A stretch of 43,382 bases of DNA from an uncultured Thiodictyon sp. (GTDB taxonomy: Bacteria > Pseudomonadota > Gammaproteobacteria > Chromatiales > Chromatiaceae): assembly GCF_903946935.1 (NCBI RefSeq), contig NZ_CAJAXH010000258.1, positions 1-43,382 on the forward strand, in the 5' to 3' direction. The notes below the pieces were generated by a model. That model had not been told where the DNA came from. It ran no database searches and was given only the letters and a program-made list of their open reading frames with translations. This document shows, piece by piece, positions 363 to 43,252 of the stretch (its first letter is position 1; every line of letters begins with the position of its first letter). The position numbers and the translations under genes were made by a program.

Positions 363-557
363 GAATGGCACTGACTTAATCTGCGGCGTTGACAAATCAG
401 CGGCTTGGAGACGAATCGCCAAGCAGTCGTTTGAGGGAAAGCGGAATTTTCCGGGGTGTTTCCTGGCGCCCGCCTAGTCCGCAACCGTTTTTCGCTCGCT
501 TCGCCGCATCGCAACCGATTGTTTCTGCGATGCTTGCGGCTTAAGTCAGTGCCATTC
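363..557. mobile_element. 195-bp MITE with 17-bp inverted ends and 11-bp target duplication
   Basis: The left end GAATGGCACTGACTTAA (363-379) is the exact reverse complement of the right end TTAAGTCAGTGCCATTC (541-557). The element is flanked by an exact 11-bp direct repeat, CAACCAGGCCC, at 352-362 and 558-568, which is the expected target-site duplication. It has no room for a transposase, so it is a non-autonomous element. Duplications of 10-13 bp are characteristic of IS4-type transposases, which suggests the mobilising family; this last point is inference. Confidence 0.8.
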
Positions 558-568
558 CAACCAGGCCC

Positions 569-944
569 CTAAGTTTTGCCTAGGCCTAGTATCACGCTAA
601 CGCAAGATCACGCGCCGCGACCGCAAACGGACCAAGTGGTGCCATAGGCGGCCTTGATCATAATCCCGGCCAGCGGCGTGCGTAGTCAGGGCTTCCAGCC
701 CTGACGGTGTCAGGCCAAGATGGCCTGACTACGCATCCGGCGAGCCCAAGTGGCCGGAATGACGATCAAGGCCTTTCATGATATTTGCTTCTTATGTAAT
801 TGTTCTGGACTGTTCCAGGTTGTTAGGGGAACGATGCTTTTATGTTCTCAATGTCGGACCTGGATTCCTCGTTATTTTGCGCCAGGGTTGGGAACGTTTA
901 CTCGATCAATTGGCTCCGACAGCCTGAAATGTCCGAAGTCAAAC
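569..944. other. Gene-free stretch, partly AT-rich
   Basis: No convincing gene is seen between the 195-bp MITE and the HEPN pseudogene. It contains the palindromic element at 650-773. The part from about 774 to 944 is clearly richer in A+T than the rest of the window. A 70-codon open frame at 750-962 has no recognisable motif and starts inside the repeat, so it is not called. Confidence 0.5.
650..773. repeat. Palindromic element with GGCCTTGATC termini, copy 1
   Basis: The 23-bp ends start GGCCTTGATC at 650 and, on the other strand, GGCCTTGATC at 773. They are inverted and differ at three positions. Between them lie two inner hairpins, GTCAGGGCTTCCAGCCCTGAC and a GTCAGGCC/GGCCTGAC pair. The copy at 1072-1196 has the same terminal sequences but different inner palindromes. 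No flanking duplication is evident at this copy. Confidence 0.65.
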
Positions 945-4090: not shown

Positions 4091-4847
4091 CTGGCCGGCC
4101 CCCCCCTGGGTCCAGGCCTGTTGTACCACCCGGTCGGGGGGCGTGAGCACCGGGGTCTGGGCCGGTCTCAACCTGGGGGACCATGTGGGGGATGAGCCGC
4201 GGCATGTCGCCCGCAACCGCGCGGCCCTGCGCACCGCCCTGAACCTGCCGGCCGACCCGCTGTGGCTCAATCAGGTCCACGGGTGTACGGTGGCGCAGAG
4301 CGCAACGGCGGTCCCCGGCTGCACGGCGGATGCCGCCGTCGCCTGCCGCCCTGGGGCGGTGTGCGCGGTGCTGACCGCCGATTGCCTGCCGCTGCTGATC
4401 TGCGACCGACGCGGTCGTCGGGTGGCGGCCGTCCATGCGGGCTGGCGCGGCTTGGCCGCGGGGGTCATCGAGGGTACGCTCAAGGCCCTGGGCGAGTCCC
4501 CCGCGGACCTCTTGGTGTGGCTCGGTCCGGCGATCGGTCCGGCTGCCTTCGTGGTGGGGCCCGAGGTGCGCGCCGCCTTCCTCGCGGCTGACCCGGCCGC
4601 GATCGGCGCCTTTCAACCCGCCGCTGGCGACCGCTGGTTGGCGGACCTCTTCGCGCTGGCCCGCGCCCGGCTTGCCCAGGCCGGGGTGACGCGGGTTTAT
4701 GGTGGCGGCGACTGTACCTACTCGGACCCCGAACGTTTTTTCTCCTTCCGTCGCGACGGTGTGACCGGGCGGATGGCGAGCCTGATCTGGTTGGGGGACT
4801 CCACGGGGAGCGATTTTTTTGCCTCACGGACCAATCTAACTCCTTGA
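4071..4847 (+). CDS. pgeF: PgeF/YfiH, multicopper-oxidase-fold peptidoglycan editing factor
   Basis: The 258-aa protein begins at a GTG codon inside the end of rluD (VQLIRPDWPAP). It contains the zinc-site motifs of the YfiH/laccase-domain family: LNQVHG (His), TADCLPLLI (Cys) and HAGWRGL (His). Members have been reported as purine nucleoside phosphorylases and as factors that remove wrongly incorporated L-Ser from peptidoglycan stem precursors. The rluD-yfiH pairing is conserved in proteobacteria. No other start with better spacing is seen; overlap with rluD suggests translational coupling. Confidence 0.93.
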   Translation: MQLIRPDWPAPPWVQACCTTRSGGVSTGVWAGLNLGDHVGDEPRHVARNRAALRTALNLPADPLWLNQVHGCTVAQSATAVPGCTADAAVACRPGAVCAVLTADCLPLLICDRRGRRVAAVHAGWRGLAAGVIEGTLKALGESPADLLVWLGPAIGPAAFVVGPEVRAAFLAADPAAIGAFQPAAGDRWLADLFALARARLAQAGVTRVYGGGDCTYSDPERFFSFRRDGVTGRMASLIWLGDSTGSDFFASRTNLTP

Positions 4848-8920: not shown

Positions 8921-9068
8921 AAATCAACGCAAAAAACGCAAAATAAAAGAGTGGGTTACTTACGTTTCGCCGAGCCGGCTCGACTCGCCCGTCGGGTGGG
9001 CTGCCTGCTTAAGCGATCGACATACAACTTCTTGAACCTATTTGCGTTCATTTGCGTTCATTTGCGTA
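8921..9068. repeat. Inverted-repeat element made of GCGTTCATTT direct repeats, copy 1
   Basis: The right border holds three tandem copies of ATTTGCGTTC-like units (9040-9068). The left border at 8921-8943 holds the inverse motif AACGCAAAAAACGCAAAAT. Between them are about 100 bp of unique sequence with no gene. Two elements of the same design occur at 15279-15417 and 19211-19341. Each sits between genes. Confidence 0.5.
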
Positions 9069-9086
9069 CAATGAATACCCGCAGGA

Positions 9087-9998
9087 TCAAGCCTCGGCGA
9101 TCCGGTCGTAATAGCGCGCCCGGTAGATGAGCCGTGGCGCCGGGCCATCGGTGAAGGCGGTGCGGGTGTGCAGGACGTTGTTGCAGATCAGTCCCCAGCC
9201 GGACTCCAGGCGGCCTTCGAGGTGCCAGGGGCTGGGTGTATTCAGAACGTTCTTGAGGCAGTCCACCGCCGCTTGGGTCAGCGGGTCGTCCCGCCAGTGG
9301 CAATGGCGGGCGCGGTTGGTGTAGCGCATATGCAGGTGTCCGTGCGCACTCACCGAGAAGACCGGGCCCGTTTGCTCCGGGCGCAGTTCGCCGCCGCCAT
9401 CGCCCGGGTTGGCGGGGATGGTCATGCAGTGGGGGTGCATCAGTGCGGTAATGAACGCCGGGGCCTGGTCGCGAACCAGGCAATAGGCGACTTCATGGTC
9501 CAGCAAGGCGTTGGCGCCGCCCGCGGCGGCCGGGTGGACGCAGTGCAGCAGCAGGCCCCGGACCTGCCGCTCGGGCGTGTTGTAATAGCCGTCGGTGTGC
9601 CAGGCGATGGGGCGATTGGTGTAGGGGATATAGCCGGCATGGCCCGCGTCCGTCTGGACCTTGAGTGAGGTGATGGCATCGGCATCCGCGCCGCGATTGT
9701 GGTCCAGGCGGTGCAGTCCGAAGCGGGCACCGAGTGCGGCCGGGATCGACTTGTCCGGGTCGTCGCCGCTGGCGCCGACATAGATCGCCATGTTGGCGCG
9801 GCGGCAGCGGTCCAGTAGGGCCTGGTATTCGGCGGCGGTCAGGCGGTGCGGGTCCCCGACCTCGACGATCAACTCATCCACGCGGGTCGGGGCGCCGGTC
9901 AGGCGGGCGTCGCGCCAGCGTTGGTAGGCGTCGATGTCAGTGAGATCGAATGGATTGCCCGGCGCCGTGCCGGCGGGACTTGACTGAGGTTTCATCAT
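9087..9998 (-). CDS. Fe(II)/2-oxoglutarate-dependent dioxygenase, TauD/TfdA-like
   Basis: The 303-aa protein has the facial-triad motif HTD in IAWHTDGYYN, a distal histidine in NNVLHTRTAF, and the 2-oxoglutarate-binding arginine region PRLIYRARYY at the C-terminus, all in TauD/TfdA order. Such enzymes hydroxylate small substrates using O2 and 2-oxoglutarate; the substrate here cannot be told from sequence. Its ATG overlaps the stop of the preceding glycosyltransferase fusion gene (ATGATGA), so the two are translationally coupled. That context hints at modification of a product linked to the polysaccharide pathway, but this is inference. Confidence 0.85.
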   Translation of the reverse strand: MMKPQSSPAGTAPGNPFDLTDIDAYQRWRDARLTGAPTRVDELIVEVGDPHRLTAAEYQALLDRCRRANMAIYVGASGDDPDKSIPAALGARFGLHRLDHNRGADADAITSLKVQTDAGHAGYIPYTNRPIAWHTDGYYNTPERQVRGLLLHCVHPAAAGGANALLDHEVAYCLVRDQAPAFITALMHPHCMTIPANPGDGGGELRPEQTGPVFSVSAHGHLHMRYTNRARHCHWRDDPLTQAAVDCLKNVLNTPSPWHLEGRLESGWGLICNNVLHTRTAFTDGPAPRLIYRARYYDRIAEA

Positions 9999-15278: not shown

Positions 15279-15417
15279 GTCCGCAAATGAACGCAAATGA
15301 ACGCCAATGGGAAAGAAACTCTTGGCGCTGGGTGGAGCTTGCATGATGGCACGCCGTAATCCAGCCTCCCGATCTTCATTCTTCCAAATTTGCGTTCATT
15401 GGCGTTCATTTGCGGAC
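15279..15417. repeat. Inverted-repeat element made of GCGTTCATTT direct repeats, copy 2
   Basis: Borders GTCCGCAAATGAACGCAAAT (15279-15298) and its near-perfect inverse at 15398-15417 bracket about 100 bp of non-coding sequence. Each border is itself a tandem of ATGAACGC units. It separates the two carboxylase subunit genes. Confidence 0.6.
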
Positions 15418-31887: not shown

Positions 31888-32979
31888 ATGGGCTTCAAAT
31901 GTGGAATCGTGGGCCTGCCCAACGTGGGTAAGTCTACGCTATTCAATGCGTTGACCCGCGCCGCCATCGCGGCCGAGAACTACCCCTTCTGCACCATCGA
32001 CCCCAATGTGGGTGTCGTCCTGCTGCCCGACCCGCGACTCGATGTCATCGCCGCCATCACCAAGCCCCAGGCGGTCCTGCCCACCGCCATGCAGTTTGTG
32101 GATATCGCCGGGCTGGTGGCCGGTGCCTCCAAGGGCGAGGGGCTGGGCAACAAGTTCCTGGCCAACATCCGCGAGACCGACGCCATCGCGCATGTGGTGC
32201 GCTGCTTTGAAAACGACGACGTGATCCACGTCTCCGGCGGCGTCGACCCCCTGCGTGACATCGAGATCATCGACACCGAGTTGGCCCTGGCCGACCTGGA
32301 ATCGGTCGAAAAGGCCCTGGACCGGGCCAGCCGTGCCGCCAAGGTTGGGGATAAGAAGGCCATGGTGCGCCGCGACTTGCTGGAGCGGGTGCGCGTGCAT
32401 CTCGACCAGGCCAAGCCGGTGCGCACCTTGGATATCAGCGACGATGAGCGCGCCGAGCTGCGCGAGCTCTTCCTGCTCACCAACAAGCCCACCATGTATA
32501 TAGCCAACGTCGCTGAGGACGGCTTCACCGCCAACCCGCTGCTGGACGCCGTGCTCAAGCACGCCGCGGATGAGGGTGCCCTGGTGGTTCCGGTCTGCGC
32601 CGCCATCGAGGCCGAGATCGTCGAGCTGGCCGATGACGAGCGCGGTGAGTTCCTGGCGGAACTGGGCCTGGAGGAACCTGGCCTGAACCGGGTGGTGCGG
32701 GCCGGCTACCAACTCCTGGGGCTGGAGACCTATTTCACGTCCGGCCCCAAGGAGGTCCGCGCCTGGACCGTCCCGGCGCGCTCGCGGGCGCCGCAGGCGG
32801 CCGGGGTGATCCACTCCGACTTCGAGCGTGGCTTCATCCGGGCGGAGGTCATCGCCTACGCCGATTTCGTCGCCTGTAAGGGCGAGCAGGGGGCCAAGGA
32901 GGCGGGCAAGCTGCGCTCCGAGGGCAAGGAGTATGTCGTCAAGGATGGCGACGTCATCCACTTCCGCTTTAATGTTTAA
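31888..32979 (+). CDS. ychF: Redox-regulated ATPase YchF (Obg-like)
   Basis: The 363-aa protein starts [25 protein letters not shown] (P-loop). It has the YchF NxxE-type nucleotide specificity region (NVAED), the coiled-coil insert and the C-terminal TGS domain ending VIHFRFNV. YchF binds ATP, associates with ribosomes and is linked to oxidative-stress control. The last codons (TTT AAT GTT TAA) contain the left attachment core of the integrated element. The protein end is preserved, as expected of site-specific insertion. Confidence 0.96.
32968..32978 (+). other. attL core of the integrated element (in ychF 3' end)
   Basis: TTTAATGTTTA overlaps the last ychF codons and stop. An exact copy is at 43219-43229, 10,251 bp away. 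The integrase gene starts 219 bp downstream and reads inward. Both junctions keep the ychF reading end FNV-stop. Confidence 0.7.
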
Positions 32980-33197: not shown

Positions 33198-34451
33198 ATG
33201 CTGACCGACGCCAAATGCCGAACCGCCAAGCCCCAGGCGACGCCCTACAAGCTCCCGGACGGGCAGGGGCTCTATCTGGAGGTGAAGCCCAACGGGGTGA
33301 AAGCGTGGCGCTACCGCTTCAAGCTGGCGGATCGCGAGAGCACGTTTGCTGTCGGCAACTATGGGGCGGCCCCCGCGGGCGAAACCCAGGACTCGGCACA
33401 GGCCCGGCGCGACGGTGGGACCTTCACCCTGGCCGAAGCGCGCGAGGAACGCGCCAAGGCCCGCGGACTGGTCAAGCAGGGGATCAACCCCGCGGCGGCC
33501 CGGCAACTGGAGCGCACCAAACAGGCACAGGCGAACGCCATTACCTTTGAGTCCGTGGCCGGTGAGTGGCTGGCCCTGAAGGACTGGACCGAGGACACCA
33601 AGGCCCGGCGCCTGGATATGCTCAAGCGTGTGGTGTTCCCGAAGATCGGGGCGCTTCCCGTGGGTCAGGTCACACCGGCGCACGTCCTGGACGTCCTGAA
33701 CACTTCGGCCAAGGACAACGGGCCAGCAGTCGCGGTTGAGGCCCGCCGGGCAATGTCTGGGGTGTTCGACCTGGCCGTGTCCACCCTGCGCGCCGCGACC
33801 GATCCGGTTCACCCCGTGCGCAAGGCACTCCCCAAGAACAAGACCCAGCACAAGCGCGCCTTGGCCGCTGAGGAAATCGGGCAACTGCTGAGGGACATGG
33901 CCGCGCACCCGGTGCGGCATGAAACCTTGGCGGCATTCCGCCTGATGTGGTTCACGCTGGCCAGGCCGTCAGAGGTAATCGAGGCCCAATGGGCAGAGTT
34001 CGACCTTGATGCAGCCATCTGGCGCATTCCTGCCGAGCGGATGAAGCTCCGCAAGGAGCACACCATACCGCTACCGACCCAGGCCGTTGCGCTACTGCGC
34101 GCGCTCCAAGGCGTTACCGGGCACCAAGCGCACCTGTTCCCTGGCCGTGACAACCGCACCAAGCCAATGAGCGGCGCGACCTTTCGTCAGGCACTCATGA
34201 CTATCGGATGGTCCGGGCGCTACAGCCCGCACGCGACCCGCACCACGGGCAGTACCCGCCTAAACGAAATGGGCTATACGTCCGACTGGATAGAGCGGCA
34301 ATTAGCCCACGCCGAACCCAACGCCGTGCGGCGCACCTACAACCATGCCGAGTATCTGAGCGACCGCGCCAAGATGATGCAGTCATGGGCGGATTACTTG
34401 GATCGAATCAAGACGGGCTCTAACGTGGTGGAGTTCCGGCGCACCGCGTAA
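33198..34451 (+). CDS. int: P4-type tyrosine integrase
   Basis: The 417-aa protein has the DUF4102-like N-terminal arm-binding domain (LTDAKCRTAKPQATPYKLPDGQGLYLEV), a core-binding SAM-like domain, and the catalytic domain. Catalytic residues are Arg256 (LARPSEV), the HATR box (His345, Arg348) and the nucleophile Tyr381 (RRTYNH). It recombines the element with the ychF 3' end. It is the first gene inside the left end and points inward, as usual for P4-type islands. Confidence 0.95.
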   Translation: MLTDAKCRTAKPQATPYKLPDGQGLYLEVKPNGVKAWRYRFKLADRESTFAVGNYGAAPAGETQDSAQARRDGGTFTLAEAREERAKARGLVKQGINPAAARQLERTKQAQANAITFESVAGEWLALKDWTEDTKARRLDMLKRVVFPKIGALPVGQVTPAHVLDVLNTSAKDNGPAVAVEARRAMSGVFDLAVSTLRAATDPVHPVRKALPKNKTQHKRALAAEEIGQLLRDMAAHPVRHETLAAFRLMWFTLARPSEVIEAQWAEFDLDAAIWRIPAERMKLRKEHTIPLPTQAVALLRALQGVTGHQAHLFPGRDNRTKPMSGATFRQALMTIGWSGRYSPHATRTTGSTRLNEMGYTSDWIERQLAHAEPNAVRRTYNHAEYLSDRAKMMQSWADYLDRIKTGSNVVEFRRTA

Positions 34452-35430: not shown

Positions 35431-35745
35431 ATGGCCCAACAAGCCGCCCCCGCCCCCCTGAAGATCATCCGCCGCCCGGCTGTCGAGGATCGCACCGGGC
35501 TTTCACGCTCAACCATCTATGGGAAGCTCCGCCAGAACCCCAAGCGCCCGGCGGAGTTCGATCCGACATTCCCCCGCCCGGTGTCGATCAGCAAGAAGGC
35601 CGTCGGCTGGGTCGAAAGCGAGGTTGACGCCTGGCTTGCTGAGCAGGTCAGAAAGAGCCGTCCCGATGTCGCGCCGACGCCGAAGCCCAAGGCCCGCCCG
35701 CAGTATCGGCCGGCGCCCGTGGCAATCCTGGACAGCGCAGCATGA
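35431..35745 (+). CDS. AlpA-family DNA-binding regulator
   Basis: The 104-aa protein has a MerR/AlpA-like helix-turn-helix: IIRRPAVEDRTGLSRSTIYGKL, then FPRPVSISKKAVGWVESEVDAWL. The rest is a Pro/Lys-rich tail. AlpA-type proteins activate integrase or excision in cryptic prophages and P4-like elements, so it may act as excisionase or activator here. The next small gene overlaps by four bases. Confidence 0.85.
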   Translation: MAQQAAPAPLKIIRRPAVEDRTGLSRSTIYGKLRQNPKRPAEFDPTFPRPVSISKKAVGWVESEVDAWLAEQVRKSRPDVAPTPKPKARPQYRPAPVAILDSAA

Positions 35746-36046: not shown

Positions 36047-39022
36047 ATGAGTGCCACCAACACCAAGCGCCCTGCCGGCGCATCCATCGACACCGGCCTG
36101 ACCGTCACCGTCTTGCGCTCCACGCGCCCGGCGCTGCTGACCAAGCGGTTCGAGCTCGCCAGCACTGGCGAGCTCAAGAAAACATCCATCGCGCAGATGA
36201 CCGAGGGCACCGCCGCCCAGGCCATCGTTGCGGACCTGTCCGGGTTCCTGGCGCTGCTGGACAGTCTGCCGCCATCCGCGGCCCTGACCTATGGCATTGC
36301 CACCGGACACCCGTCCGCGCGCATCGTGGCGAGCGCCAAACACACCGAGGACAGCACCGCGATCACCCGGACGCGCCGCTTTTTTCAGTTCCGCCGCGCG
36401 CCCGGGATCATGTTCCTGGACTACGACCCGCCCAAACCGATTTCGGAATGTTCGGAAACAAACCCACCTAAACCCACCAAACCCACCATAGGGCCAGAGT
36501 CGATAAGTCCCGCCGACCTGATCGCCACCCTGCGAGCAGTTGCCCCGTGCCTGGCCGATGCGCCGATGTTGTGGCGCCCGTCAGCATCGTCGGGCATCGT
36601 CCACGCCACCACGGGCGAGCCGTTGACCGGGCTTGCAGGGCAGCGGATTTACATCCCGGTCGCTGATGCGGCCCTGATTCCGGACGCCGGCAAGGCCCTG
36701 GTCACGCTCCTGTGGGCGGCCGGTTACGGTCGGATCGAGATCGGCGCCGCTGGGCAGGCCCTCGAACGAACCCTGGTGGATGCGTCCGTCTGGCAGCCCG
36801 AGCGCCTGGACTTCGCCGCGCCGCCGTCGCTCGGTCCTGGACTTCGCCGCGAACCTCAGGCCGCATTTATCGATGGTGAGCAGGGTGAACTGTGCGACCT
36901 GCGGCGGCTGATCGATGCCGCTGACGGCACCATCAAGGCCCAGGCCGCCACCGCGCGCAAGATCGCGAAAGCCGCAGCACGCCCGGCAATCGCCGCCGCC
37001 CAAGCTGCCTGGATCGACGTTGAGGCCCCAGTGCTGGTGCAGCACGGGATTCCCCTTGATGTTGCCCGCGCCGTGCTGGCCCGCGCCTGTGACGTCCACG
37101 ACCTGACCGGCGAGTTCCGCCTACAGTGCCCCGACGGCACCACAACGACAGTCGGCGACCTGTTAGACAACCCGGCGAAATGGCACGGCAAGCGGTTTGC
37201 CGATCCGCTGGAGCCCAACTATGGGCAGGACCCGCGCATTGCTTGGGCCAACCTGCGCAGCGGCGGCCGGCCCTACCTACACAGTCACGCCCACGGCGGC
37301 CGAAAGTTCCGTCTGGTGCGTCCGAGCGCGCGCATCCGTCTTGCTGTCGGCGAACGCGCCCGAGTTCTGGACAACCTCCTTGACCTGCTGCGGACCCGCG
37401 CGGAGCTCTACGATCACGGCGAAGGCTCCGCTCTGGCCAGGATCACCGAAGATGCGCGCGCCCTCCCAGCGTCGCGCGAGTGGCTGACCGACCATCTGGA
37501 CCGGACGGCCCAGTTCTATTCCGAAAAGGTCGACGGGCAAAACGAAGACAAAACCGCAAAAATCATCCAAGTGACGCACGACGCACCCGCTTGGGCTGCG
37601 ATGCGAATCATCGCCAAAGACGGCGAGCGGGGACTGCCCAAGCTGGACGCGGTAATCTCCGCGCCGACCTTGCGCGCGGACGGCTCGGTACTCTCTGAGC
37701 CCGGATATGACTCCGCGTCGCGCCTCCTCTTGCTGGCCGATGCCCCGGACATCCCGCATATCCCGGACGCACCGACGATCAGTCAGGTCCGCGCCGCCCT
37801 GGAACTGCTGTGGTCGCCTGTCGCGCTGTTCCCCTTGGTGGACTCGGTTGACCGCGGGGTGATACTCGCCGCGCTGCTGACTGCGGTTGTGCGGGCGAGC
37901 ATCCCGACGGCGCCCGGGTTCGCCTTGGACGCGCCCACGGCGGGTACCGGAAAAACCCTGCTGGCCGAAGTCATCGGCGCCCTGTCGCTCGGGTACGCGC
38001 CCACCGTGTTCTCGCCGATCAGTTCGGACGATGAGGAGACCCGCAAGCTCCTGTTCGCCGCCTTGCGTGATGGGCAGCGCGTGCTGATATGGGACAACAT
38101 CCGCGAGCCGCTCGGTAACGGCACGCTGGATGCGTTCTTGACCGCGCCCACGTTCTCCGGGCGCATCCTGCAGACCAGTTCCACGGCGACCCTGCCGAAT
38201 CGGGCGCTGTTCCTCGCCACCGGCAATAACCTAGTCTTGAAGGGCGACACCTGCCGGCGCCTGTTCCCGGTGCGGCTGGACGCGCGGATAGAGCGCCCTT
38301 ACGCGCGGATGTTCGACTTCGATCCTTTGCAGGTTGTCCTGGCCCGCCGTTTGGAGTTCGTCACAGCCGCCTTGACCATCATGCGCGGATGGATCGCCGC
38401 CGGGCGCCCGCGCCACGGGGCAGGGCGCAGCGCGTCCTTTGGCGACTGGGACAACCTTGTGCGGCAAACCGTCTGCTGGGTCGGCACCCTAGACCAGCGG
38501 TTTGCCGATCCGCTCAAGGCCACTGATCGCGCCTATGAGATCGACCCCGAAACAACGAAGCTGTCGGCGCTGCTGTCGGCTTGGAGCGACGCCGTCGGCA
38601 CCATGGCGACCACGACCGGGCACCTCATCACGCTGGCCATGAGCGGGGATCGGGTGCGCCAACAGATTTCGCAGCAAAAGGCCATGCAGCGCGAAGAGGT
38701 TGTCGCCTCTTTGATCGCCGAAGAACAGCGCGTTGAAGCGCTGCGTGACGCGGTGGAGGAAATAGCCGGGAATCCGCGCGGGGACATCAACCGGCGCAGT
38801 CTTGGGCGATGGATCGAGAGCCACCTTGAGCGGCGGCACGCGGGCGCCCGGCTGACGCGGGGAAAGCTCAGTGCGGGGTCGCAAACCTGGCTGCTGGCAC
38901 ACGACAAGCCCGCCGCTCAGTCTGGCCCTATGGTGGGTTTGGTGGGTTTAGGTGGGTTTGTTTCGGAACATGGCGAATTGCCCGCCACCGCCGCCGCGGA
39001 TGTGATCGAGGTGGAGGCATGA
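36047..39022 (+). CDS. Primase/helicase-like ATPase of the integrated element
   Basis: The 991-aa protein has an N-terminal region resembling primase-polymerase domains of mobile elements (ATGHPSARIV, then RRFFQFRRAPGIMFLDYDPP). A helical middle follows, then an ATPase with Walker A APTAGTGKT (629-637), a DNI acidic segment (VLIWDNIREP) in the Walker B position, and LFLATGNN as sensor. It is the likely replication protein of the element, comparable in role to P4 alpha. The exact family is not certain. Two arms of a 51-nt inverted repeat lie within the gene, at codons 134-151 and 958-975. GGAGA precedes the ATG. The next gene overlaps the stop by four bases. Confidence 0.78.
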   Translation: MSATNTKRPAGASIDTGLTVTVLRSTRPALLTKRFELASTGELKKTSIAQMTEGTAAQAIVADLSGFLALLDSLPPSAALTYGIATGHPSARIVASAKHTEDSTAITRTRRFFQFRRAPGIMFLDYDPPKPISECSETNPPKPTKPTIGPESISPADLIATLRAVAPCLADAPMLWRPSASSGIVHATTGEPLTGLAGQRIYIPVADAALIPDAGKALVTLLWAAGYGRIEIGAAGQALERTLVDASVWQPERLDFAAPPSLGPGLRREPQAAFIDGEQGELCDLRRLIDAADGTIKAQAATARKIAKAAARPAIAAAQAAWIDVEAPVLVQHGIPLDVARAVLARACDVHDLTGEFRLQCPDGTTTTVGDLLDNPAKWHGKRFADPLEPNYGQDPRIAWANLRSGGRPYLHSHAHGGRKFRLVRPSARIRLAVGERARVLDNLLDLLRTRAELYDHGEGSALARITEDARALPASREWLTDHLDRTAQFYSEKVDGQNEDKTAKIIQVTHDAPAWAAMRIIAKDGERGLPKLDAVISAPTLRADGSVLSEPGYDSASRLLLLADAPDIPHIPDAPTISQVRAALELLWSPVALFPLVDSVDRGVILAALLTAVVRASIPTAPGFALDAPTAGTGKTLLAEVIGALSLGYAPTVFSPISSDDEETRKLLFAALRDGQRVLIWDNIREPLGNGTLDAFLTAPTFSGRILQTSSTATLPNRALFLATGNNLVLKGDTCRRLFPVRLDARIERPYARMFDFDPLQVVLARRLEFVTAALTIMRGWIAAGRPRHGAGRSASFGDWDNLVRQTVCWVGTLDQRFADPLKATDRAYEIDPETTKLSALLSAWSDAVGTMATTTGHLITLAMSGDRVRQQISQQKAMQREEVVASLIAEEQRVEALRDAVEEIAGNPRGDINRRSLGRWIESHLERRHAGARLTRGKLSAGSQTWLLAHDKPAAQSGPMVGLVGLGGFVSEHGELPATAAADVIEVEA
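36448..36498 (+). repeat. 51-nt inverted repeat, left arm (AAACCCACC iterons)
   Basis: This arm contains three tandem AAACCCACC-type units and encodes the Pro/Lys/Thr linker NPPKPTKPT. Its reverse complement at 38921-38971 matches at 50 of 51 positions. It lies inside the primase/helicase gene. The opposite strand is G-rich (GGTGGG three times) and could form a G-quadruplex. Confidence 0.85.
38921..38971 (-). repeat. 51-nt inverted repeat, right arm (GGTGGGTTT iterons)
   Basis: On the plus strand this arm reads GGTGGGTTT-type units three times and encodes MVGLVGLGGFVSE. The arm ends 51 bp before the end of the primase/helicase gene. It pairs with 36448-36498 with one mismatch. Confidence 0.85.
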
Positions 39023-39582
39023 CCGCCGCCGCCACACTCGCCCGCGCCCGCGCCGATGGGGTAACGCTGGCCCTGGACCCGGCCGGCAAGCTCAAGGTCC
39101 GTGGCACTGACGCCGCCGTCGCTCGCTGGCTGCCGGAAGTCCGCGCCCACAAGCCCGCCCTGCTGGCGATTCTCAGCGGCACCGGCCCGGCCCCCGCCGG
39201 TGAACCGGCCGACCCCGCCACCAACTGGCGCTGGCTGATCTCCCCTGCGGACGGCTGCCGGTTCTCCCTGTCCAGCACCCCGCCAGCCACCCGGGCAGAG
39301 GTCGAGGCCCTGCACCCCGGCGCCCTGGTCGATCTCGAACCCAGCCCCGCGCCCGTCGCGCCGCACCACCTGGAGCAGGCGGCCGCCATCCTCGAGCCGG
39401 TGCCGACGCCGACGCCCGCCCTGGTGACCTGCCGGACCTGCGGCCACTGGCGCCGCGATCAGGTAGGCGACGGGTCAGGGCTTGGCCGGTGCCTGGCCAG
39501 TGCGCCCGCCAGCTTCAAGCCGGGCTCATGCTGGCCGCGGGGCGAGATCGTCTGTCGTGAGCATCAAGGGGTGACGGAATGA
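39019..39582 (+). CDS. TubC-docking-like protein with C-terminal Cys cluster
   Basis: The 187-aa protein starts with a short module (ATLARARADGVTLALDPAGKLKVRG, then EVRAHKPALLAIL). It resembles the TubC-like N-terminal docking fold often encoded beside primase genes of mobile elements. After a Pro-rich linker comes a Cys-rich end: CRTCGHWR, then GRCLA, SCW and VCREH, possibly a zinc site. Function unknown. It overlaps both neighbours by four bases, so it belongs to the replication operon. Confidence 0.6.
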   Translation: MTAAATLARARADGVTLALDPAGKLKVRGTDAAVARWLPEVRAHKPALLAILSGTGPAPAGEPADPATNWRWLISPADGCRFSLSSTPPATRAEVEALHPGALVDLEPSPAPVAPHHLEQAAAILEPVPTPTPALVTCRTCGHWRRDQVGDGSGLGRCLASAPASFKPGSCWPRGEIVCREHQGVTE

Positions 39583-42565: not shown

Positions 42566-43252
42566 ATGACAGACACCACCACCACGAAGCGCGGACGGCC
42601 AGCCACGGGACGCGCCCGCACCCCGGCCCAGCGATCCGCAGACCTGCGAGCACGGGCGCGAACCCAGGTATTCGAGGGCAGCCCGACGCCGCTCGGTGAG
42701 GTTGCCGCGTCGGTCCTGCTGGAAGGGATCGCCACGGCCTACCGCGCCCGCCTGCCGTTCGAGGTTGAGCGGATCGCGGGTGAGCTGGTTCGGCGCTTAT
42801 CCGTTGCAGCAACGGAAATAGAGTCCGTTGCGGAAACGGTAATTCCTGAACCCTTAACCGTTGCGGAAACGAATAAGGGCGAAGCCAGAGGCTACCCGGC
42901 TGCGGTTCAGCGCATGGCCCTGGGCATGGCCGACCGTGGGGACAAGCCCGCCGACGTCCGCGCCGCGATCATGGCAGCGTGCGGCAAAGCCCCGAGCCGA
43001 CAGAACTTCGGCAAGAGCCTGCGTCGCTGGCGCGAGGGCGACACCGCGCGGAACAGGCGGCGCGGTCGGGATCGAGGTCCGGGAGCGGGGCAGGGGGCAG
43101 CCCTCCCAGGGTGCGAAAAGCCCCAAGCGATCCTAAAAGCGGGTACAAAAGCGGGCACAAAACGCCGCACACGAAACGCGAAGCTAGCAACGGCAAGGCT
43201 TACAGGCGAGACTACGCGTTTAATGTTTAGGCTGACGGCGACGAGCCGGTAG
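42566..43252 (+). CDS. Hypothetical protein, possible self-regulating DNA-binding protein, reading through attR
   Basis: The 228-aa frame starts MTDTTTTKRGRPATGRARTP, then AQRSADLRARARTQVFEGSP. The N-terminus is strongly basic; the middle includes three SVAET-like repeats encoded by DNA copies of the upstream operator. The C-terminal part (PADVRAAIMAACGKAPSRQN, then FGKSLRRWREGD) has a helix-turn-helix-like run. The last eight codons lie beyond the attR core in flanking DNA. In an excised circle the frame would instead end [16 protein letters not shown]. Function unknown; a regulator or partition-like role is inferred from the repeats only. Confidence 0.6.
   Translation: MTDTTTTKRGRPATGRARTPAQRSADLRARARTQVFEGSPTPLGEVAASVLLEGIATAYRARLPFEVERIAGELVRRLSVAATEIESVAETVIPEPLTVAETNKGEARGYPAAVQRMALGMADRGDKPADVRAAIMAACGKAPSRQNFGKSLRRWREGDTARNRRRGRDRGPGAGQGAALPGCEKPQAILKAGTKAGTKRRTRNAKLATARLTGETTRLMFRLTATSR
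42801..42872 (+). repeat. Three CCGTTGC-AACGG iterons inside the coding region
   Basis: CCGTTGCAGCAACGG (42801-42815, perfect palindrome), CCGTTGCGGAAACGG (42825-42839) and CCGTTGCGGAAACGA (42858-42872) repeat the motif found twice in the promoter region. They are in frame, 24 and 33 bp apart, and encode SVAAT, SVAET and TVAET. Confidence 0.75.
43137..43158 (+). promoter_or_regulatory. Integrase arm-type sites, right end (two AAGCGGGTAC repeats)
   Basis: AAGCGGGTAC at 43137 and AAGCGGGCAC at 43149 share sequence, orientation and 12-bp spacing with the four copies at the left end. They lie about 60 bp inside the attR core. Confidence 0.6.
43219..43229 (+). other. attR core of the integrated element
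   Basis: This is an exact copy of the TTTAATGTTTA at the end of ychF. The following base completes GTT TAG, so the original chromosomal ychF would also have ended FNV-stop before integration. Confidence 0.65.

What the first reader, a model, noticed from the sequence alone, without database searches (positions are those of the whole stretch)
36448..38971. 51-nt inverted repeat with iterons at both ends of the replication gene
Two arms, 50/51 identical and inverted, each with three AAACCCACC/GGTGGGTTT units, lie 2.4 kb apart within one gene; they encode unrelated peptides (NPPKPTKPT and MVGLVGLGGF). Coding need cannot explain this DNA-level identity. Options are replication iterons bound by the encoded protein (compare ori and crr of P4), a G-quadruplex-forming pair, or recombination sites of an invertible segment.
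Basis: partly seen in the sequence, partly recalled or inferred. Interest (0 to 1): 0.75.

Follow-up and report, generated by a model that had tools for sequence, protein, structure and literature searches.

The report
Split replication origin inside a gene
A small mobile DNA element seems to carry the start site for its own copying inside the gene for its copying enzyme, as two mirror-image groups of three short repeats, one near each end of the gene, where many relatives keep both groups side by side at the end of the gene.

Summary
The inverted repeat is real: 57-nt arms at 36442-36498 and 38921-38977 (54/57; core 50/51), each with three AAACCCACC/GGTGGGTTT units, 2.4 kb apart in one 991-aa gene, with no third copy found in the genome. 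The gene encodes a PrimPol/D5-type primase-helicase without a Pfam match, in a probable ~10.3-kb integrative element. Relatives explain the repeat: 38 of 69 homolog loci carry a compact inverted pair of ~9-nt iteron clusters at the 3' end of the gene, against 1 of 225 control ORF ends. Iteron sequence differs between elements and follows the C-terminal region more than the helicase core. One relative is the only large gene of a 6.5-kb plasmid. So the arms are most likely the two half-sites of a P4/PICI-like origin. Unusually, they are split: the 5' arm is a 57-nt in-frame insertion, an inverted copy of the 3' arm, absent from 23 of 23 aligned homologs. Two-ended layouts also occur in L133, L006 and L213; L224 has a third cluster near its 5' end. 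G-quadruplex and invertible-segment readings are disfavoured. 24 of 69 loci show no pair. Binding and replication are untested. New variant of a known kind.

The parts
36047..39022 (+). Primase-helicase gene, 991 aa: N-terminal PrimPol-like part, D5/SF3-type AAA+ helicase, C-terminal winged-helix-like region, disordered tail
   Evidence: ORF; PHROG 'DNA primase' phrog_16593 3.1e-53 and phrog_29234 (unknown function) 7.3e-80; no Pfam match at E 1 for this protein and no NCBIfam match at 0.1; AlphaFold model pLDDT 85, Foldseek matches to ASFV PrimPol, D5/E5, NrS-1 and PriRep1 at low whole-chain TM-score
36442..36498 (-). 5' half-site (arm 1): three iterons AAACCCACC at 36460-36468, 36470-36478, 36479-36487 (G-rich strand is minus); 57-nt in-frame insertion encoding S133-E151
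   Evidence: 23 of 23 aligned homologs have 0-5 residues opposite these 19; encoded peptide predicted disordered, pLDDT <50 at 133-150
38921..38977 (+). 3' half-site (arm 2): three iterons GGTGGGTTT at 38932-38940, 38941-38949, 38951-38959, followed by GTTTCGGAAC; encodes about residues 959-977 of the disordered tail
   Evidence: the coding 3' end holds iterons in relatives L133, L135 and L137-L141; pLDDT <50 at 956-991
38759..38905 (+). Codes for residues 905-953, C-terminal helix/two-strand (winged-helix-like) region, the proposed iteron-binding part
   Evidence: secondary structure H916-925, E934-938, E947-952; iteron similarity follows this region; 'winged helix' is my reading
36419..36427 (+). 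Asp-x-Asp motif (D125, D127) of the PrimPol-like domain, five codons before the insertion
   Evidence: both residues invariant in the 24 aligned sequences; name of the motif recalled
33198..34451 (+). Tyrosine integrase of the element
   Evidence: PF00589, PF13356, PF22022; phrog_1
35431..35745 (+). Excisionase / AlpA-like regulator
   Evidence: phrog_66 2.4e-07, phrog_2790 1.4e-06, 'excisionase and transcriptional regulator'; 'AlpA-like' is a recalled label
32968..32978 (.). Candidate left attachment core TTTAATGTTTA at the 3' end of ychF (31888-32979)
   Evidence: homology to the other genus genomes ends between 32975 and 33004 in 6 of 7; the seventh matches to the end of the query, 33200
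43219..43229 (.). Candidate right attachment core TTTAATGTTTA
   Evidence: 6 of the 8 plus-strand AGCGGG(T/C)A sites of the window lie near the two ends: 33085, 33097, 33109, 33142, 43138, 43150; no empty-site homology found

Best explanation
The two arms are the two half-sites of the element's replication origin. Each is a cluster of three ~9-bp iterons bound by the C-terminal winged-helix-like region of the primase-helicase in whose gene they lie. Inferred working: protein binds each cluster, a hexameric helicase assembles there, the opposite orientation of the clusters lets two helicases start in opposite directions, and the N-terminal primase lays primers; in the window the clusters are 2.4 kb apart, so they would meet by looping or each load a helicase alone, as may hold for P4 ori and crr. 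Shown by sequence: the repeat, its place, the frequent inverted iteron pairs of relatives, their change from element to element, and the link between iteron sequence and the C-terminal region. Also inferred: the 5' half-site arose as an inverted 57-nt copy of the 3' half-site inserted in frame into a loop that tolerates it.
For: Compact inverted pair at the 3' end of 38 of 69 homolog loci (<90% identical to each other), against 1 of 225 control ORF 3' ends in the same loci, score >=14. Iteron sequences differ between elements. Across 45 loci (946 usable pairs), iteron similarity follows the C-terminal region given the core (partial r 0.276, permutation p 0.0005) more than the core given the C-terminal region (0.127, p 0.07); the highest of 26 sliding windows is residues 901-945. 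Spacers of 21 convergent pairs, two near-duplicate couples included, are AT-rich (0.56 against 0.41 in flanks, p 2e-6). Psychrobacter plasmid pA32H2 (6,547 bp) has a homolog as its only ORF above 167 aa, with an inverted iteron pair around an AT-rich spacer 99 nt after it. pRN1 and pRN2 carry 21- and 20-nt inverted arms 3' of their replication genes; in pRN1 this region is experimentally essential (PMC4234260, passages). PICI origins: two iteron sets flanking an AT-rich region 3' of rep, one shown to work in E. coli (PMC6092414, passages). P4 has iterons on both sides of alpha. Two-ended arrangement also in L133, L006, L213, plus a third cluster in L224, each 0 of 300 in codon-shuffled controls. 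The 5' arm is an insertion absent from 23 of 23 aligned homologs. Apart from residues 1-14, the arm-encoded peptides are the disordered parts of the model.
Against: No binding or replication experiment. 31 of 69 homolog loci show no compact pair at this threshold; six of these have a wide-spaced pair and L170 one upstream of the gene, leaving 24 unexplained, though the method is strict: P4's known sites score only 12. Close relative L132 has no cluster at its gene end; its two clusters lie about 4 kb upstream in the same orientation. L134 has only same-orientation copies upstream of the gene. The window lacks the AT-rich spacer of the convergent origins (gene 33% AT). The covariation is moderate, and window 541-585 is second (0.217). 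The right end of the element is not confirmed by an empty site.
Confidence: 0.8

Rival explanations
1. Only the 3' cluster (with some unrecognised partner) is a working site; the 5' arm is a recent, neutral templated inverted duplication.
For: Arm identity runs past the iterons into flanks with no obvious binding role, as expected of a fresh copy; the 5' arm is an insertion absent from 23 of 23 aligned homologs.
Against: Two-ended arrangements recur with different iteron sequences and positions (L133, L006, L213, and a third cluster in L224). The window has no compact partner at the 3' end, so without the 5' arm it would have half an origin. All three 5' iterons are intact.
Confidence: 0.25
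2. Inverted recombination sites that flip the 2.4-kb segment between them.
For: Long, nearly identical inverted arms.
Against: Flipping would place a stop at codon 152 of the replication gene. The 29 compact pairs measured in relatives are 20-150 nt apart, with no room for a gene cassette, and arms are repeated ~9-nt units that differ by element.
Confidence: 0.04
3. A pair of G-quadruplex-forming sequences.
For: The window's G-rich strand has six short G runs per arm; a relaxed motif occurs in 20 of 44 iteron sets.
Against: A strict motif occurs in 1 of 44 sets and 24 of 44 lack even the relaxed one, for example L141, L006, L160 and L185, although an inverted layout is kept.
Confidence: 0.05
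4. A stem-loop (cruciform) origin as proposed for pRN1: the arms pair with each other and structure, not repeated sequence, is recognised.
For: pRN1's 100-bp stem-loop region is essential and a similar one was proposed for Bordetella phage BIP-1 (PMC4234260, passages); many of the compact pairs have arms ~60 nt apart.
Against: Arms are tandem ~9-nt units; in the window, L133, L135, L136, L006 and L213 they are 1.2-2.7 kb apart, too far for a local hairpin. No ungapped inverted pair was found 3' of the primase of BPP-1, a phage related to BIP-1, whose own record was not held. pRN1/pRN2 arms can themselves be read as two 9-nt units (inference).
Confidence: 0.08

Closest known systems
Phage P4 alpha / ori / crr replicon
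   Same: One protein with primase, helicase and an origin-binding region; 8-nt iterons in both orientations on both sides of the replication gene: crr 4291-4590 just 3' of alpha, ori 9086-9809 upstream
   Different: In P4 both sites are outside alpha and ori is ~2.1 kb upstream of it; P4's primase is of the bacterial TOPRIM type (PMC4234260, passages); the window's arms lie inside the gene and one looks copied from the other
PICI / SaPI rep-ori
   Same: Integrase, regulator and primase-replicase gene; two iteron sets in or just after the 3' end of the gene in many relatives; fold match to PriRep1 (7pds; that it is a SaPI protein is recalled)
   Different: Window half-sites are 2.4 kb apart with no AT-rich spacer; no match to a Pfam or NCBIfam family; no packaging gene recognised among the ten element ORFs scanned
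Sulfolobus pRN1/pRN2 replication origin
   Same: PrimPol-helicase-winged-helix protein, essential ~100-bp inverted element 3' of the gene (shown for pRN1), 58 and 57 nt between arms
   Different: Published as a stem-loop, not iterons; archaeal plasmids; compact
SCCmec Cch2 origin
   Same: Self-loading helicase whose C-terminal domain binds a site with three short iterons just after its gene (PMC7581432, passages)
   Different: 5-nt direct iterons; separate polymerase-primase; no two-ended layout in the passages seen

Membership tests
P4/PICI-type primase-helicase replicon | Replication protein with helicase core and primase | tested here: met
   PHROG primase match and Foldseek matches to PrimPol/D5/PriRep1; enzyme activity not tested
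P4/PICI-type primase-helicase replicon | Two sets of short iterons in opposite orientation | tested here: met
P4/PICI-type primase-helicase replicon | Iterons just 3' of the gene, flanking an AT-rich region | tested here: not met
   Met by many relatives; in the window one set is in the 3' coding end, the other 2.4 kb upstream, with a GC-rich gene between
P4/PICI-type primase-helicase replicon | Protein binds the iterons; rep plus ori replicate autonomously | not testable with these tools
   Indirect: C-terminal covariation, plasmid pA32H2
Phage-inducible island / satellite | Integrase, regulator, replication module, ~10-15 kb, att sites | tested here: inconclusive
   Genes present; att repeat and arm-type repeats found, but no empty site; the size range is recalled
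Phage-inducible island / satellite | Phage induction and packaging by a helper | not testable with these tools
   No capsid or terminase family among ten element ORFs scanned
pRN1-type stem-loop origin | Arms close enough to form a local stem-loop 3' of the gene | tested here: not met
   2422 nt between arms
Invertible DNA segment | Dedicated recombinase and both orientations observed | not tested
   No reads available; the inverted gene would be truncated at codon 152
G-quadruplex element | G-tract motif kept among relatives | tested here: not met
   1 of 44 strict, 20 of 44 relaxed

The most novel reading that the evidence does not exclude
The PICI origins, the pRN1 'stem-loop' and the pairs seen here are one widespread origin type, two inverted clusters of 2-3 ~9-bp iterons read by the C-terminal region of a PrimPol-SF3 helicase, in bacteria and archaea. 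The half-sites act as separate modules: they can be copied, inverted and moved kilobases apart into coding sequence, as in the window, and still fire together. Iteron sequence and C-terminal region evolve together, so recognition could be predicted.
Probability: 0.4. Interest if true: 0.75.

Novelty: new variant of a known kind. Interest (0 to 1): 0.6.

Why it matters
It gives a simple rule for locating the origin in many members of a primase-helicase family that Pfam does not recognise. It offers natural cases (half-sites 1.2-2.7 kb apart) that could separate the iteron model from the stem-loop model put forward for pRN1-type origins. It also makes testable how one helicase recognises quickly changing 9-bp sites, and how an origin can be moved into a gene without breaking it.

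Tried and rejected
PDB sequence search with the family profile gave no credible relative. BPP-1 phage primase: no ungapped inverted pair 3' of the gene, only a short direct repeat. P4's own sites 3' of alpha score 12, below my threshold of 14, so the count of 38 of 69 is likely conservative. The 9-nt periodicity filter missed the window and L136; both were redone without it. A search for the empty chromosomal site downstream of the right end found no homology, so the right end rests on the 11-bp repeat and the arm-type repeats. Papers: searches (P4 terms; PriRep, P4/crr, coding-embedded origin), gave listings of which I saw titles and abstract starts; none speaks of a two-ended layout, nor do the passages I read of four papers. 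That is the whole basis for calling it undescribed, in this open-access library only. No held paper has both 'Psychrobacter' and 'pA32H2'.

Error corrected: (and 80 for the covariation windows) read minus-strand loci from the genome search on the wrong strand (L192, L195, L198, L199, L201, L202 in 60; those of them in use in the others), and one search did so for a further set, redone. One search repeats the count and the covariation with the right strand. The first results were 33 of 63 against 2 of 263 and partial r 0.276. For one search, 16 loci were left out by name as duplicates, partial genes or half matches (L004, L005, L007, L009, L181, L182, L190, L204, L205, L206, L211, L212, L219, L220, L222, L225); L217 (same place as L008) and the named records L174-L176 and L227 were never entered; six failed quality control (L155, L163, L184, L185, L186, L194); seven were >=90% identical to a kept locus (L147, L150, L152, L178, L179, L203, L207). 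L139, which has an internal stop, was kept. Nine of the 69 proteins are under 600 aa, so some are partial relatives; L187 matches the primase half only. One search used 29 hand-listed compact pairs, near-duplicates L145/L147 and L177/L179 and L185 included; one search used 19 of them; neither holds a mis-read locus.
Full report
OBSERVATION. The window holds a 57-nt inverted repeat, 36442-36498 against 38921-38977, 54 of 57 positions complementary, with a 51-nt core of one mismatch. Each arm has three units of AAACCCACC / GGTGGGTTT, spaced 9 or 10 nt. It is the best inverted pair of the window by a wide margin (48 against 26) and 300 codon-shuffled controls reach at most 18. A search of the own genome with arm 1 and its edges found these two places only. 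Both arms lie in one ORF of 991 codons, 36047-39022.

THE GENE. No Pfam model matches it at E 1 and no NCBIfam model at 0.1; eight diverse homologs have no Pfam match at 0.01 either. PHROGs match families called DNA primase and DNA polymerase/primase. An AlphaFold model from an alignment of 24 sequences has mean pLDDT 85. Foldseek matches it to ASFV PrimPol, poxvirus D5/E5, NrS-1 primase and PriRep1 with dsDNA, at low TM-scores for the whole chain, so the assignment is a fold-level resemblance. D125 and D127 are invariant among the 24. The model ends in a helix and two strands (916-952), which I read as a winged helix. Its low-confidence parts are residues 1-14, 133-150 and 956-991: apart from the N terminus, these are the stretches that hold the two arm-encoded peptides.

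THE ELEMENT. Upstream lie a tyrosine integrase (33198-34451) and an excisionase-like gene (35431-35745). An 11-bp repeat, TTTAATGTTTA, occurs at the 3' end of ychF (32968-32978) and at 43219-43229, and 6 of the 8 plus-strand AGCGGG(T/C)A sites of the window lie near these ends. Homology to the seven other genomes of the genus ends between 32975 and 33004 in six; in the seventh it runs to the end of the query at 33200. This suggests a ~10.3-kb element in ychF, laid out like a PICI or P4-like satellite. The sequence after the right end found no homology in those genomes, so no empty site is shown. No packaging gene was recognised among ten element ORFs scanned.

RELATIVES SHOW WHAT THE REPEAT IS. 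In homologs, inverted pairs of clusters of ~9-nt repeats often stand at or just after the 3' end of the gene. In the corrected count, 38 of 69 loci (under 90% identical to each other) have such a pair in the stretch from 250 before to 400 after the stop codon, against 1 of 225 control ORF ends from the same loci. The units differ between elements: for example ACAGCACTG (L141), TTGCAGGTTC (L154), AAACCTACC (L164), AGTGGGTTT (L171), TAGGGTTTC (L008). In 21 pairs whose G-rich strand comes first, spacers of 46-150 nt are AT-rich (0.56 against 0.41 in the flanks, p 2e-6); in 8 pairs of the other orientation spacers are 20-102 nt and not clearly AT-rich (0.44 against 0.37, p 0.2). In L137, L138, L139, L141, L145 and L147 the whole compact pair lies inside the coding sequence; in L140 and L197 it overlaps the stop.

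A FUNCTIONAL ANCHOR. Plasmid pA32H2 of Psychrobacter (6,547 bp) has a 933-aa homolog; its other five ORFs of 80 aa or more are 83-167 aa, so the homolog is the likely replication protein. It is followed by an inverted pair of GGTAGGGATA-type clusters around an AT-rich spacer. [quoted passage not shown] coli (PMC6092414, passages). pRN1 needs a 100-bp inverted element 3' of its replication gene, a PrimPol-helicase-winged-helix protein (PMC4234260, passages); its 21-nt arms, and those of pRN2 (20 nt), can be read as two 9-nt units each (my reading). P4's record shows 8-nt iterons in crr, just 3' of alpha, and in ori, upstream of alpha.

RECOGNITION. Over 45 loci with iterons, iteron similarity follows identity of residues 905-953 after allowing for the helicase core (partial r 0.276, p 0.0005 by permutation), while the reverse is weaker (0.127, p 0.07). 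The highest of 26 windows from 526 to 945 is 901-945 (0.236), with 541-585 second (0.217). Leaving out pairs above 60% identity changes little (0.266 over 914 pairs). This points to the C-terminal region as reader of the iterons but does not prove binding.

THE SPLIT. In the window the two clusters are 2.4 kb apart. Arm 1 encodes S133-E151; in the 24-row alignment 23 of 23 other sequences have 0-5 residues opposite these 19 (first seen), so arm 1 is an in-frame insertion of about 57 nt. The coding 3' end, in contrast, holds iterons also in L133, L135 and L137-L141. The similarity of the arms outside the iterons argues for a copy made not long ago, from the 3' arm into the 5' part. Other two-ended cases: L133 (N-terminal extension and 3' end, 2.7 kb), L006 and L213 (2.4 kb, GAAACCGAT-type units), and L224, which has a compact 3' pair and a third cluster near its 5' end, 2.8 kb away. 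L135 and L136 have one cluster in the 3' coding end and one 1.2 and 1.9 kb downstream. Codon-shuffled controls reach none of these in 300 trials each. As 5' positions and iteron types differ, two-ended origins probably arose more than once; L006 and L213 look like one case, and relatedness of the others was not tested with a tree.

AGAINST. 31 of 69 loci lack a compact pair. Six are the wide-spaced cases (the window, L133, L135, L136, L006, L213) and L170 has a pair upstream of its gene. The other 24 remain without an explanation, some perhaps because the method is strict (P4 scores 12) or because they are partial relatives. L132 and L134, among the closest relatives, have same-direction clusters upstream and no inverted pair. 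The window has no AT-rich spacer.

RIVALS. Inversion would stop the gene at codon 152. A strict G-quadruplex motif occurs in 1 of 44 sets. A stem-loop cannot be the general requirement where arms are kilobases apart, if those origins work, which is untested. That the 5' arm is only a neutral copy remains possible (0.25).

CONCLUSION. Most likely a split, gene-embedded iteron origin of a PrimPol-helicase replicon: a known kind of origin (P4, PICI) in an arrangement of which I saw no sign in the titles and abstract starts listed or in the passages read.

Noticed in passing
L143-L197, spacers of convergent origins: Hexamer TGTCAG occurs in 8 of 19 spacers, in some as AACTGTCAG...TGACAGTT; shuffled spacers give mean 0.56, maximum 3. 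The commonest hexamer of shuffled sets averages 5.2, maximum 8, so it is notable rather than certain.
   Followed up: partly
39019-39582; also L132, L133, L134, L137-L139, L141: The next ORF overlaps the stop of the primase gene and, judged by eye from the DNA after the stop, several relatives have a similar start there; no Pfam or PHROG match in the window.
   Followed up: no
L166:83-568 and L005:4731-5330: Small ORF with CPSC...CRHCLN / CPVAGC...CRHCLN (zinc-finger-like by eye) near the origin in pA32H2 and after the primase in L005: a possible companion gene.
   Followed up: no
L134:825-1177: C-rich iteron block repeated in tandem (about 100-nt and 78-nt steps) just before the gene start, like an origin being amplified.
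   Followed up: no
window 9040-9066, 15282-15308, 15388-15417: Dispersed ATTTGCGTTC-type short tandem repeats outside the element, in both orientations.
   Followed up: no
L174 and L175, 3' of the replication genes: The pRN1 and pRN2 'stem' arms can each be read as two 9-nt units (TGTCCATAG/TGTCCAACT; GGACCGATA/GGACAGGAA), so the published stem-loop may be an iteron pair.
   Followed up: partly
L202 (partial homolog in a genome of the same class): Has GGTGGGTTT x3 followed by AATTCCGG, nearly the window's half-site, but as a compact pair 44 nt apart.
   Followed up: no
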